Of a stretch of 64,000 nt of DNA, positions 17,971-35,014 are shown in pieces (position 1 is the stretch's first letter; the number at the start of each line of letters is the position of its first letter). Under the pieces are notes generated by a model. The model was not told the origin of the DNA. It made no database searches and was given only the letters and a program-made list of their open reading frames with translations. The position numbers and the translations under genes were made by a program. The stretch is from NCBI RefSeq assembly GCF_000007345.1, contig NC_003552.1, positions 2,418,001-2,482,000 of the forward strand. Direction: 5' to 3'. The stretch is from Methanosarcina acetivorans C2A. GTDB lineage: Archaea; Halobacteriota; Methanosarcinia; Methanosarcinales; Methanosarcinaceae.

Positions 17971-18130
17971 ATTCATAGATTGAAAATTCATAGATTAAAT
18001 ATTCATAGATTAAAAATTCATAGATTGAAAATTCATAGATTAAATATTCATAGATTGAAAATTCATAGATTGAAAATTCATAGATTAAAAATTCATAGAT
18101 TGAAAATTCATAGATTAAAAATTCATAGAC
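17971..18130. repeat. 15-bp tandem array, about 11 units
   Basis: Units of ATTCATAGATTGAAA or ATTCATAGATTAAAA/T are in perfect 15-base register from 17971. The array lies between the PASTA and TPR genes, in what would be the TPR promoter region. Because 15 is a multiple of three it is open as an IHRLK repeat on the plus strand, which is an artefact. Confidence 0.95.
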
Positions 18131-18200
18131 TACCCATTACAGAAATCACTCGGAACTGTAGATGTTACTCAAAGGTCTGCCTGAAAAAGGGTGGCTGACT

Positions 18201-21704: not shown

Positions 21705-21789
21705 GTCCTCTTGAACGAGCGAAGCGAGTGAAAAGGACCTCGTGCTCCCGAAGCGAAACTCGGGAAGCGAAACTCGGGAAGCGAAACTC
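21705..21789 (+). repeat. Dispersed double-hairpin repeat, copy A, with 14-bp tandem extension
   Basis: Hairpin 1 is GTCCT (21705-21709)/AGGAC (21734-21738) around CTTGAACGAGCGAAGCGAG. Hairpin 2 is CCCGA (21747-21751)/TCGGG (21760-21764). Hairpin 2 then expands into a tandem AAGCGAAACTCGGG (14 bases, 2.8 copies). The same pair of hairpins occurs at 35331-35382, and the first hairpin also at 24105-24140 (inverted) and 61803-61828. Confidence 0.8.
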
Positions 21790-22011
21790 AGTAATTTCAA
21801 ATTAAGGCCAGGAATTTTGACCTCAATATTATAAGTAAATTTTCTTTTAGAATTTTGCTTTTTTTACTGAGCAGGAGGCATTTTATAAGAAGATATAAAT
21901 AGCAGCATTTGCTCGTACAAACAATTTCAGCCCATCATTGCGATAAATTGCTTGAAAATTTTGAAGGCGATTTATTACATCAAAGAAATAGAAAAATAAT
22001 TTCCACTTATG

Positions 22012-22021
22012 TTTTATATAT
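22012..22021 (+). promoter_or_regulatory. TATA box upstream of the structured RNA
   Basis: TTTTATATAT is a near-ideal archaeal TATA element. Initiation about 25 bases downstream would fall near 22042-22046, immediately before the first stem at 22047. AATAATTTCC lies upstream. Confidence 0.6.
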
Positions 22022-22041
22022 AACAGCTATACTATAGCATG

Positions 22042-22350
22042 TAGTCCTAAATGCTAATATTGAATGGGGTTCATGAGAGCATTTAGCAAAAAAACAGCAG
22101 TCCAGGGCAAATGAGGTTCGCCATTCCTCAGTCCTGCCCTGCGCAACCGGAACCTCTCCAGGATGAGGCGACTATCGAGGTTTTTTGCCATTCCTCGGTG
22201 CCCGATTCCGAGAGAGGTTTCGTAGGCGGAAGTCGAAAATGAGGTTCGCCATTCCTCAACCGGCTTCCGCAGATATCAGAACCAACGGAGAAGTGAGAGG
22301 CAAATCCCTCTCTCAATACTATTTTTACCTCTCACTTCCACTCTGATCTC
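22042..22350 (+). ncRNA. Candidate structured non-coding RNA with five stem-loops
   Basis: There is no gene here, but there is dense secondary structure. P1 pairs CTAAATGCT (22047-22055) with AGCATTTAG (22078-22086). Three consecutive units share an inner hairpin GAGG-TT..GCCATT-CCTC: TGAGG/CCTCA at 22112-22130, CGAGG/CCTCG at 22176-22197 and TGAGG/CCTCA at 22240-22258. Each is enclosed by its own outer stem: CAGGGCA/TGCCCTG (22103-22109 with 22135-22141), CGGAACCTCTC/GAGAGGTTTCG (22148-22158 with 22212-22222) and GCGGAAGTCG/CGGCTTCCGC (22226-22235 with 22261-22270). P5 pairs GAAGTGAGAGG (22290-22300) with CCTCTCACTTC (22328-22338), extended by CAGA/TCTG and AGAT/ATCT. GAGAGG can instead pair with CCTCTC at 22307-22312. 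T-runs near 22440-22470 could terminate it. The strand is inferred from the TATA box. Confidence 0.7.
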
Positions 22351-23039: not shown

Positions 23040-23948
23040 ATGACTATTAAATGTAAAAAGTGCAACCATGAAGCTATCATTTTTCAAAAATACTCCGGAA
23101 TGCACCTCTGCAAAAGGCATTTTATAGAGGACGTTGAAAGGAAAATCAAGCTGACAGTCCGGAAAGACTACAGCATCAAGAAAAATGACGTAATAGCCGT
23201 TGCCCTGAGTGGGGGAAAGGACAGCTCGGTTGCTCTCTATGTGATGCATAAGATCCTGGGGAACAGGCCGGATATTCAGATCGTGGCTGTTTCAATCGAT
23301 GAGGGAATCCACGGATATCGTCCCCACTCCCTCGAGCTTGCAAAAAAGCTTACGGAAACCCTTGGCGTCCGGCATATAATAAAGTCTTTTAAAGACGAAC
23401 ACGGGGTTACAATGGACGAGCTGGCTGCAATGGACCGGGAAAAAGGCACATGCAGCTACTGCGGAGTTCTCAGAAAAAGTATCCTTAACAGAGTAGCGCT
23501 TGAAATAGGGGCAACGAAACTTGTAACAGGGCACAACCTGGACGATGAAGCCCAGACCATTCTCCTCAACCATTTCAGGGGAGATATGGAACGCATGGTC
23601 AGGCTTGCGCCTCCTGCAGCCGTAGAAGGACTTGTGTTGCGGGCAAAACCCCTGCGGAATATCCCGGAAAAAGAAGTGGCACTCTATGCCTTAATAAACT
23701 CCCTGCCTGTGGACTTCAGTGAGTGCCCGTATGCAGGAGAAGCCCTCAGAGGGGAAATTAGGGAACTGCTAAACAATTTTGAGACAGGACACCCGGGCAC
23801 CAAGTATTCCTTACTACGCGGCTTTGACAAGCTCGTTGGCGCCCTTGCAAAGGAACTGCCACCTGCAAAAATCGAAAAATGCAGGATCTGCGGGGATACC
23901 TGTACCGAAGATATCTGCCAGGCATGTAAACTGCTCGGCAGGACCTGA
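23040..23948 (+). CDS. ncsA: tRNA 2-thiolation adenylyltransferase (NcsA/TtuA/Ncs6 family)
   Basis: Predicted to activate the uridine of target tRNAs with ATP before sulfur transfer. It is 302 residues. The amino end has a zinc site (Cys5, Cys8, Cys24 and His). The PP-loop is ALSGGKDSSVALYV (Ser57-Ser62). The middle has TCSYCGVLRKS and VTGHNLDDEAQT, and the carboxy end CRICGDTCTEDICQAC is a second zinc ribbon. The central CxxC and the conserved Cys of YAGEALR surroundings are the positions that hold an Fe-S cluster in relatives. AAGGA lies six bases before the ATG. It stands alone. Confidence 0.92.
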   Translation: MTIKCKKCNHEAIIFQKYSGMHLCKRHFIEDVERKIKLTVRKDYSIKKNDVIAVALSGGKDSSVALYVMHKILGNRPDIQIVAVSIDEGIHGYRPHSLELAKKLTETLGVRHIIKSFKDEHGVTMDELAAMDREKGTCSYCGVLRKSILNRVALEIGATKLVTGHNLDDEAQTILLNHFRGDMERMVRLAPPAAVEGLVLRAKPLRNIPEKEVALYALINSLPVDFSECPYAGEALRGEIRELLNNFETGHPGTKYSLLRGFDKLVGALAKELPPAKIEKCRICGDTCTEDICQACKLLGRT

Positions 23949-34042: not shown

Positions 34043-34069
34043 GGCATTTGGCGGCTCTTTGTCGGGTAA

Positions 34070-35014
34070 GTCGGGAGGATTACTCCTCCTTTCTCCCCCA
34101 GGAACCGTACGTGAAAGTTTCCCTTCATACGGCTCGAGTGTTTTCAAACCCTTTCTGTATCAGGCATCAGTTATTTGCATAACTGATTTTGTGATCCCGG
34201 ATAACAGCCCATTAACATTACTGTCTGTACGCCTCTCACCTACTGGTGTCTTTGAGTATCTTACATTCGTGAGTTTGTTTCCGTTCACACAAGAAAACAC
34301 TATCAGTAAGTCAGCATCTTTTCAGATTAGGGCAAAGTTTGAACCCCTATTCAATCCATTACAGATTGACATTCATGCGTCTTCGGTTGAGTGAGGAATC
34401 GTGATAAATTGCCTCCATTCTCACAACAATTGTCAATAATTTTAATGTGTTGTGGACTGGAACTGGATATCGATTTCATGTAATAAAGCCAAAATTTAAG
34501 GCAGCCTTTTGGTGCAAAATCGATAGCTTTCAGGCAAGAAAACTCCTTAACCGATGACCAATGGATTGACATTCGTTTTTTACTGAATCCTTTACCCTCT
34601 TTGTCATTCTTGCTCCTTACGAAGTTCCTACCCTCTTAAAGGGGACAAATAGAGCTTACCAAGTTTTATGTCATGAATAATTATGGGTTCTTTAGGGACC
34701 ATCTATAAGCCGGAAACCGTTTGTCCATTTGATTTAACATCACGCCAGCTGTTAAAGCCTGATTTCGTACCATTTTGGTTCAAGCGTATCAATCCAATTT
34801 CGCTTGTTGTACTTCACGACTTTTACAATGGTTAACTTTACGTTTCCCATGGAGCCCTTACCCTAGCAAGTTATCTGAACTGGATTTTCAGAGGTTCTCA
34901 CATTGTCCCAGAAGCTTTGCACCCCATCATTACTAATGACGCACATTCTGGTAGGGTTACCCCAAATGGAAAGGGCAGCATCTTAGCAATTCATGACATA
35001 ACATCTTGTCGCAC
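34070..35014 (-). mobile_element. Group II intron, ORF-less or with a decayed maturase
   Basis: On the minus strand, domain V is at 34135-34102: exactly 34 bases, from GAGCCGTATGAAGGG to CACGTACGGTTC, the canonical catalytic hairpin with the GAAA-type loop region. It is followed by CTGGGGGAGAAAGG and a domain VI hairpin GGAGGAGTAATCCTCC (34087-34072) with an unpaired A for branching; the 3' end is likely the AC at 34071-34070. The 5' end matches GUGYG, GTGCGACAAGATG from 35014. Total about 945 bases, too short for a 1.5-kb maturase. A frame at about 34614-34540 (MTKRVKDSVKNECQSIGHRL) and an overlapping one (SIHWSSVKEFSCLKA) may be frameshifted remains of the maturase amino end. It lies 28 bases after the end of the IorA-like gene, antisense to it. 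Confidence 0.8.

What the first reader, a model, noticed from the sequence alone, without database searches (positions are those of the whole stretch)
22042..22350. Candidate new structured RNA: three units with one shared inner hairpin and three different, still-paired outer stems
In a 1.6-kb gap without genes, a TATA box (22012-22021) is followed by stem P1 (9 bp) and three units about 64 bases apart. Each unit has an inner hairpin (T/C)GAGG-TT..GCCATT-CCTC(A/G), whose closing pair changes from T-A to C-G in unit 2 while staying paired. Each is enclosed by an outer stem of 7, 11 and 10 bp with unrelated sequence (CAGGGCA/TGCCCTG; CGGAACCTCTC/GAGAGGTTTCG; GCGGAAGTCG/CGGCTTCCGC). Keeping pairing while sequence changes is what a functional RNA shows. 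Units 1 and 3 share 22 identical bases, so the loop TTCGCCATT may be the recognition site of a protein or another RNA; three copies would make a multivalent RNA. This is not explained by any feature type I know by sight.
Basis: partly seen in the sequence, partly recalled or inferred. Interest (0 to 1): 0.85.

Follow-up and report, generated by a model that had tools for sequence, protein, structure and literature searches.

The report
Conserved antisense RNA for methylamine genes
A roughly 300-base RNA gene, conserved across methane-producing Methanosarcina archaea, carries in its first hairpin a stretch that matches, as an antisense, the start of the messenger RNA for trimethylamine use, and it may be the missing RNA-level control of that pathway.

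Summary
The feature is real. The three units, P1 and a fifth 3' hairpin at 22042-22350 fold far better than shuffles (z -5.8). They recur, always with three units, in 25 Methanosarcina genomes and 4 genomes of a sister genus; a truncated relative in a third genus keeps the P1 motif but has a completely replaced P1 stem. Rfam has no match.

The invariant 15-mer AATGGGGTTCATGAG in P1 is complementary to the 5' leader of the mtbC-mttB-mttC (di/trimethylamine methyltransferase) operon in 20 species that have both partners, and in a second genus. The site lies about 60 nt into the published leader of M. mazei MM_1687. The same complement occurs upstream of a hydantoinase-like gene, and in an intergenic RNA-like element that also repeats AATGGCAAAA, the complement of the unit loops. 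The unit loops (GCCAUU) also match AUGGC start regions: mttB starts AATGGCAAAAAA, a perfect 12-mer match to loop 2 in many species.

Best reading: a multi-site trans-acting antisense sRNA of methylamine methanogenesis. Pairing with the leader is well supported by comparison; direction of regulation, role of the loops and the sponge idea are inferred. No expression data were available.

The parts
21991..22020 (+). Conserved promoter region: GAAAAATAATTTCC (consensus GAAAAATCATTTCCA) plus TATA-like TTTTATATA at 22012-22020; start site predicted near 22040-22045
   Evidence: nearly invariant in the genus and in sister genus g5; start site inferred, not measured
22047..22086 (+). P1: stem CTAAATGCT/AGCATTTAG enclosing the target-pairing motif
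   Evidence: fold; conservation; stem completely replaced (GTCAAAAA/TTTTTGAC) in genus g4
22063..22077 (+). P1 motif AATGGGGTTCATGAG, complementary to the mtbC-mttB-mttC leader (CTCATGAACCCC), a hydantoinase-like gene leader and an intergenic RNA-like element
22103..22141 (+). Unit 1: outer stem CAGGGCA/TGCCCTG, inner hairpin GAGG-TTCGCCATT-CCTC (22113-22129)
22148..22222 (+). Unit 2: outer stem CGGAACCTCTC/GAGAGGTTTCG, inner hairpin GAGG-TTTTTTGCCATT-CCTC (22177-22196); loop complementary to the mttB start AATGGCAAAAAA
22226..22270 (+). Unit 3: outer stem GCGGAAGTCG/CGGCTTCCGC, inner hairpin GAGG-TTCGCCATT-CCTC (22241-22257)
22290..22338 (+). P5: 3' hairpin GAAGTGAGAGG/CCTCTCACTTC with conserved loop AAATCCCTCTCT..TTTTT; a pyrimidine-rich tract follows, probable 3' end
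   Evidence: compensatory changes at 3 pairs; conserved loop; 3' end inferred

Best explanation
The locus encodes a trans-acting antisense small RNA of about 300 nt. Its first hairpin (P1) exposes an invariant motif that base-pairs with the 5' leader of the mtbC-mttB-mttC operon mRNA. The complementary block is GCUAAA..CUCAUGAACCCC, about 60-75 nt from the start of the leader and over upstream AUG codons. The three loops carry GCCAUU, the complement of AAUGGC, which occurs in the same leader (AAAAUGGCAC, an upstream start) and at start codons such as mttB. Binding probably masks upstream-ORF and gene starts, and so changes translation or stability of the methylamine methyltransferase message. 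Shown by comparison: conserved RNA; conserved complementarity of P1 to the leader in two genera. Inferred: transcription, in vivo pairing, direction of regulation (repression while methanol is used is my guess), joint action of the loops, and P5 as the 3' end.
For: (1) Conserved, structured, noncoding locus with its own promoter-like region. (2) One-mismatch complements of the P1 motif, found blind genus-wide, lie 0.86-1.1 kb upstream of mttB in antisense orientation in 16 Methanosarcina genomes by coordinates. The loci show CTCATGAACCCC(A/G) or a close variant about 216 nt upstream of mtbC. (3) 20 species have both partners and an extended duplex of -29.6 to -40.2 kcal/mol; a 12-base perfect core CTCATGAACCCC is present in most. 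(4) In genus g4 both genomes keep ACTCATGAACCCCATA upstream of mttB. The g4 sRNA pairs with the g4 leader at -37.7, the Methanosarcina sRNA only at -27.5. (5) G087 and G089 sRNAs read AACGGGG and their leaders read CCCGGT, turning an A-U pair into G-C. (6) mttB starts AATGGCAAAAAA, a perfect 12-base complement of loop 2; in 2051 G103 genes the best match for the unit-1 loop is a methylamine corrinoid gene and mttB ranks sixth for loop 2. (7) MtbC and MttB identified by NCBIfam (MttB by its part before the pyrrolysine codon). (8) In M. mazei the operon start is 414 nt upstream of the annotated mtbC start, the true start is 138 nt earlier, and the leader carries two translated small ORFs of unknown role (PMC11549558); this places the P1 site about 60 nt into the leader.
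Against: No expression data. Duplex energy alone is not rare: 34 of 20000 random 75-nt windows and 18 of 2050 G103 leaders reach -31 kcal/mol, so the argument rests on position, contiguity and conservation. Leader homology between close species makes the 20 cases non-independent. The site is weak in G079 and G103 (CTCATTAATC..) and not seen near mttB in sister genus g5 within 3 mismatches among the hits listed, although g5 has the sRNA. The g4 covariation is one-sided: g4 P1 pairs with the G000 leader as well as the native one does. Loop energies against gene starts do not exceed shuffled loops overall. ATGGC starts are common in highly expressed genes.
Confidence: 0.72

Rival explanations
1. 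Protein-titrating RNA: the three identical hairpins bind copies of an RNA-binding protein and sequester it, as CsrB/RsmZ do with CsrA; the antisense match of P1 is secondary.
For: Three copies with invariant loops on variable outer stems, the architecture of multivalent protein sponges.
Against: Near-copies of the hairpin elsewhere in G000 are no more frequent than the reversed control (a partial test, its loop spacing was one base off). The invariant core GCCAU is exactly the complement of AUGGC starts, and the P1 motif has conserved RNA complements. No candidate protein found.
Confidence: 0.12
2. The intergenic partner element (RNA-B; L312, L313, L317-L319) is the main partner: the two ncRNAs pair with each other through P1 and the repeated AATGGCAAAA segments, one acting as sponge or anti-regulator of the other, and mRNA effects are indirect.
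For: RNA-B has ATCATGAACCCCATT plus 2-4 copies of AATGGCAAAA between a TATA-like promoter and a terminator-like hairpin; strong matches in several genomes and weaker ones, mostly to the repeat-plus-hairpin part, in others; duplex about -32 kcal/mol.
Against: The mtt leader site is found in more species and in genus g4. RNA-B repeats also read as a lysine-rich small ORF in some species, so it may be a small mRNA and another target.
Confidence: 0.25
3. P1 and the leader share complementarity only because of an ancient inverted duplication; there is no functional pairing.
For: P1 is a hairpin, so its stem resembles its own reverse complement; close relatives inherit the leader.
Against: The 12-base block is retained across two genera while most of the leader diverges, and the same complement occurs in two unrelated leaders.
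Confidence: 0.08
4. The element is the leader or a cis-regulatory RNA of the downstream gene (NcsA-like tRNA thiolation protein, 23040-23948).
For: Same strand; in several species the same gene lies downstream.
Against: 700 bases separate P5 from the gene, and in many species the gene is not the immediate neighbour within the fetched flank while the RNA is intact.
Confidence: 0.04

Closest known systems
Methanosarcina mazei sRNA162 (Jaeger et al. 2012, PMC3510493)
   Same: Intergenic Methanosarcina sRNA with stem-loops; antisense pairing through a defined domain to a 5' leader and a ribosome binding site; linked to the methanol/methylamine switch
   Different: Different locus (between MM2441 and MM2442), 191 nt, linker rather than hairpin-loop seed, acts through a transcription factor mRNA; here the methyltransferase operon leader itself is the predicted target and there are three repeated units
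M. mazei sRNA154 and sRNA41 (described in PMC5867862 and PMC11456600)
   Same: Structured archaeal sRNAs reported to mask ribosome binding sites of metabolic mRNAs
   Different: sRNA154 has two loops and nitrogen targets; sRNA41 targets ACDS operons. By eye I found no strong complement of the loops at cdh starts in G000, though the sRNA41 sequence could not be read
Bacterial multi-hairpin sRNAs (LhrC family; CsrB/RsmZ), from general knowledge
   Same: Several near-identical hairpins exposing the same short motif
   Different: Archaeal, with a separate 5' antisense hairpin; no sequence relation known; loops complementary to AUGGC starts rather than CU-rich anti-SD or GGA motifs

Membership tests
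trans-acting antisense sRNA (functional class) | independent transcript with own promoter and end | tested here: inconclusive
   conserved promoter-like region and 3' hairpin; no expression data
trans-acting antisense sRNA (functional class) | conserved complementarity to mRNAs encoded elsewhere | tested here: met
   mtbC-mttB leader in 20 species and genus g4; hydantoinase-like leader
trans-acting antisense sRNA (functional class) | regulation of the target in vivo | not testable with these tools
   needs deletion and reporter assays
sRNA162 family | locus, architecture and target as published | tested here: not met
   the published account gives another locus, a 191-nt RNA with a single-stranded linker and other targets
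sRNA154 / sRNA41 | sequence identity | not tested
   published sequences not held; cdh starts show no evident complement
any Rfam 15 family | score above the gathering threshold | tested here: not met
   only a group II intron found in the window
CsrB-like protein sponge | same hairpin in mRNA leaders of a regulon | tested here: inconclusive
   no excess over reversed control in G000, but the pattern used a 4-base spacing that does not fit the units exactly

The most novel reading that the evidence does not exclude
A dedicated archaeal sRNA with a 5' antisense hairpin and three anti-start-codon loops coordinates methylamine methanogenesis by pairing at several sites of the same polycistronic mRNA (upstream ORFs and mttB start), and is itself titrated by a second ncRNA that reiterates its target sequences, an archaeal sRNA-sponge circuit.
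Probability: 0.3. Interest if true: 0.88.

Novelty: new variant of a known kind. Interest (0 to 1): 0.72.

Why it matters
The trimethylamine operon of Methanosarcina has a long 5' leader with two translated small ORFs; a 2024 study excluded a riboswitch and left post-transcriptional control open (PMC11549558). This RNA is a concrete, conserved candidate for that control, with a specific pairing site that can be mutated and compensated. Few archaeal sRNAs have assigned targets, and I found no archaeal RNA sponge in the library searched. Methylamine use is a major route of methane formation in marine and wetland settings (general knowledge).

Tried and rejected
Exact 10-mer complement GAGGAATGGC in G000: 23 hits, 3 in the element, most others at the start of a multi-copy transposase gene; judged a coincidence or a side effect.
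ACDS (cdh) operons as targets, by analogy with sRNA41: starts read by eye, no convincing match.
Short ORF in P1 (MLILNGVHE..): reading frame broken by a deletion in the sister genus, so not a conserved peptide.
Cis pseudoknot between GAATGG (P1) and CCATTC (loops): not kept in G087, G089 and G081.
Search for more hairpin copies: no excess over control, pattern spacing imperfect.
Unit-hairpin alignments for a covariance model: not used further, because BLAST plus motif searches already defined the family.
Duplex-energy ranking as sole evidence: calibrated and found insufficient.
Homologs outside the three genera: motif hits in other families of the order lack the unit hairpins, and one Methanosarcinaceae hit (L107) has only a chance-like single hairpin.

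Full report
CHECK. The window lies in a 5.75-Mb Methanosarcina genome (G000:C1:2418001-2482000). The described elements are present at the stated places. 22042-22350 folds at -115 kcal/mol, z -5.8. Rfam has no match; the window's only hits are parts of a group II intron elsewhere.

CONSERVATION. A BLAST search of 112 genomes of the family finds the RNA in 25 Methanosarcina genomes and 4 genomes of a sister genus, g5, plus a 25-base hit in genus g4. All 29 loci have exactly three units. The alignment shows four conserved kinds of element: the promoter region GAAAAATCATTTCCA..TTTTATATA, the P1 motif, the three loops with GCCATT, and P5. Outer arms vary freely. Compensatory pairs occur in P5. Inner stems change from GAGG/CCTC to AAGG/CCTT in one g5 genome. 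Unit-2 arms pair better with their own partner than with another species' (mean -24.4 against -19.2 kcal/mol); for units 1 and 3 the difference is small. In g4 the truncated homolog keeps AATGGGGTTCATGAG and a unit hairpin, while the P1 stem is entirely different (GTCAAAAA/TTTTTGAC). This is a structured RNA family confined, as far as seen, to three genera; motif hits elsewhere in the order lack the units.

TARGETS, FROM THE LOOPS. I scanned 2051 predicted genes in 2.4 Mb of one genome (G103). The best start-site duplex for the unit-1 loop is a methylamine corrinoid protein gene (GGAGG..ATGGCGAACC), and mttB (GGAGGAAATGGCAAAAAC) ranks sixth for loop 2; overall energies do not exceed shuffled loops, so this was a lead only. 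Across the genus mttB starts AATGGCAAAAAA in many species and AATGGCAAAA in the others, a 12- or 10-base perfect complement of the loop-2 sequence TTTTTTGCCATT. In the window's own genome mtmC reads ATGGCAAACC, one mismatch to loops 1/3.

TARGETS, FROM P1. A blind pattern search for the P1 motif with one mismatch gave recurrent extra hits. Compared with mttB coordinates, 16 of them fall 0.86-1.1 kb upstream of mttB, antisense to the operon. The sequences show the mtbC leader carrying AAAATGGCAC..AAAAAC..CTCTGCTAAA..CTCATGAACCCC(A/G), collinear antisense to P1, to its 3' arm (AGCATTTAGC) and to the loop core. Twenty species hold both partners and extended duplexes of -29.6 to -40.2 kcal/mol. 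Such energies alone are not rare (34 of 20000 random windows at -31 or better); the weight lies in a mostly 12-base perfect core at a fixed place. In genus g4 both genomes have ACTCATGAACCCCATA upstream of mttB, and the g4 leader fits the g4 sRNA (-37.7) better than the Methanosarcina one (-27.5); the reverse comparison shows no difference. In G087 and G089 sRNA AACGGGG faces leader CCCGGT, a paired change at one position. The site is weak in G079 and G103 and was not seen near mttB in g5.

FURTHER COMPLEMENTS. The same sequence lies 42-46 nt upstream of a hydantoinase/acetophenone-carboxylase-like gene in four genomes, with two tandem near-copies in one. It also lies in an intergenic element (RNA-B) between a PAS-domain gene and an ilvD-like gene. 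That element has a TATA-like start, ATCATGAACCCCATT, two to four AATGGCAAAA segments and a terminator-like hairpin; strong matches occur in several genomes and weaker ones, mostly to the repeat-plus-hairpin part, in others. It could be a sponge, or a small mRNA under the same control. The PAS and ilvD names rest on my reading of the translations, not on a search.

FIT WITH PUBLISHED WORK. In M. [quoted passage not shown] the real start is 138 nt earlier; the leader has two translated small ORFs; a riboswitch was excluded and post-transcriptional control left open (PMC11549558). My geometry (P1 site about 216 nt upstream of mtbC; TATA about 100 nt upstream of the site) places the pairing about 60-75 nt into that leader, over upstream AUGs (ATGGCACCAAAA.. 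and CTC-ATG-AACCCC).

MECHANISM. Most likely the sRNA anneals through P1 to the leader, and GCCAUU loops add contacts at AUGGC sequences in the leader or at mttB; this would block upstream-ORF or gene starts, or change mRNA stability. Shown: conservation and complementarity. Inferred: expression, binding, sign of the effect. I guess repression during growth on methanol; activation by stabilisation, as reported for sRNA154 (PMC5867862), is equally open mechanistically.

COMPARISON. It works like the archaeal sRNAs 162, 154 and 41 but is not sRNA162 (different locus and architecture); identity with sRNA154 or sRNA41 could not be tested because those papers are not held. Whether the transcript was already numbered in the M. 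mazei deep-sequencing list is unknown.

Noticed in passing
L297, L286, L292 and other mttB loci, about 216 nt downstream of the P1 site: mtbC appears to begin with a conserved AUU codon (GGAGGATGCAAC-ATT-AGCAAAGAAGAA) in the leaders aligned; in L292 it lies about 138 nt upstream of the next in-frame ATG (354-216), matching the published corrected start. A non-canonical AUU start would be unusual.
   Followed up: partly
L312, L313, L317, L318, L319 (intergenic, between a PAS-domain gene and an ilvD-like gene): Second ncRNA-like element (RNA-B) with ATCATGAACCCCATT, repeated AATGGCAAAA and a terminator-like hairpin; in some species the repeats read as MAKNPKTAKNPK...
   Followed up: partly
L311, L314, L315, L316: Hydantoinase/acetophenone-carboxylase-like gene whose leader has one or two copies of a (T)TCATGAACCCCATT-like site 42-46 nt upstream of the start.
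   Followed up: partly
G000 loci L059, L062-L064, L067, L071, L073, L075-L077, L079-L081: A multi-copy transposase gene (start region GGAGGAATGGCTATTGATACGAGATTTG) carries the perfect 10-mer complement of the unit loops at its start; possible chance side target.
   Followed up: no
window 34061-34977, minus strand: Group II intron domains (RF00029, RF02012).
   Followed up: no
window 21745-21790: Short direct repeats (gaagcgaaactcgg) upstream of the RNA gene.
   Followed up: no
window 17980-18198: Open frame of repeated KIHRL/NIHRL units, an apparent tandem repeat.
   Followed up: no
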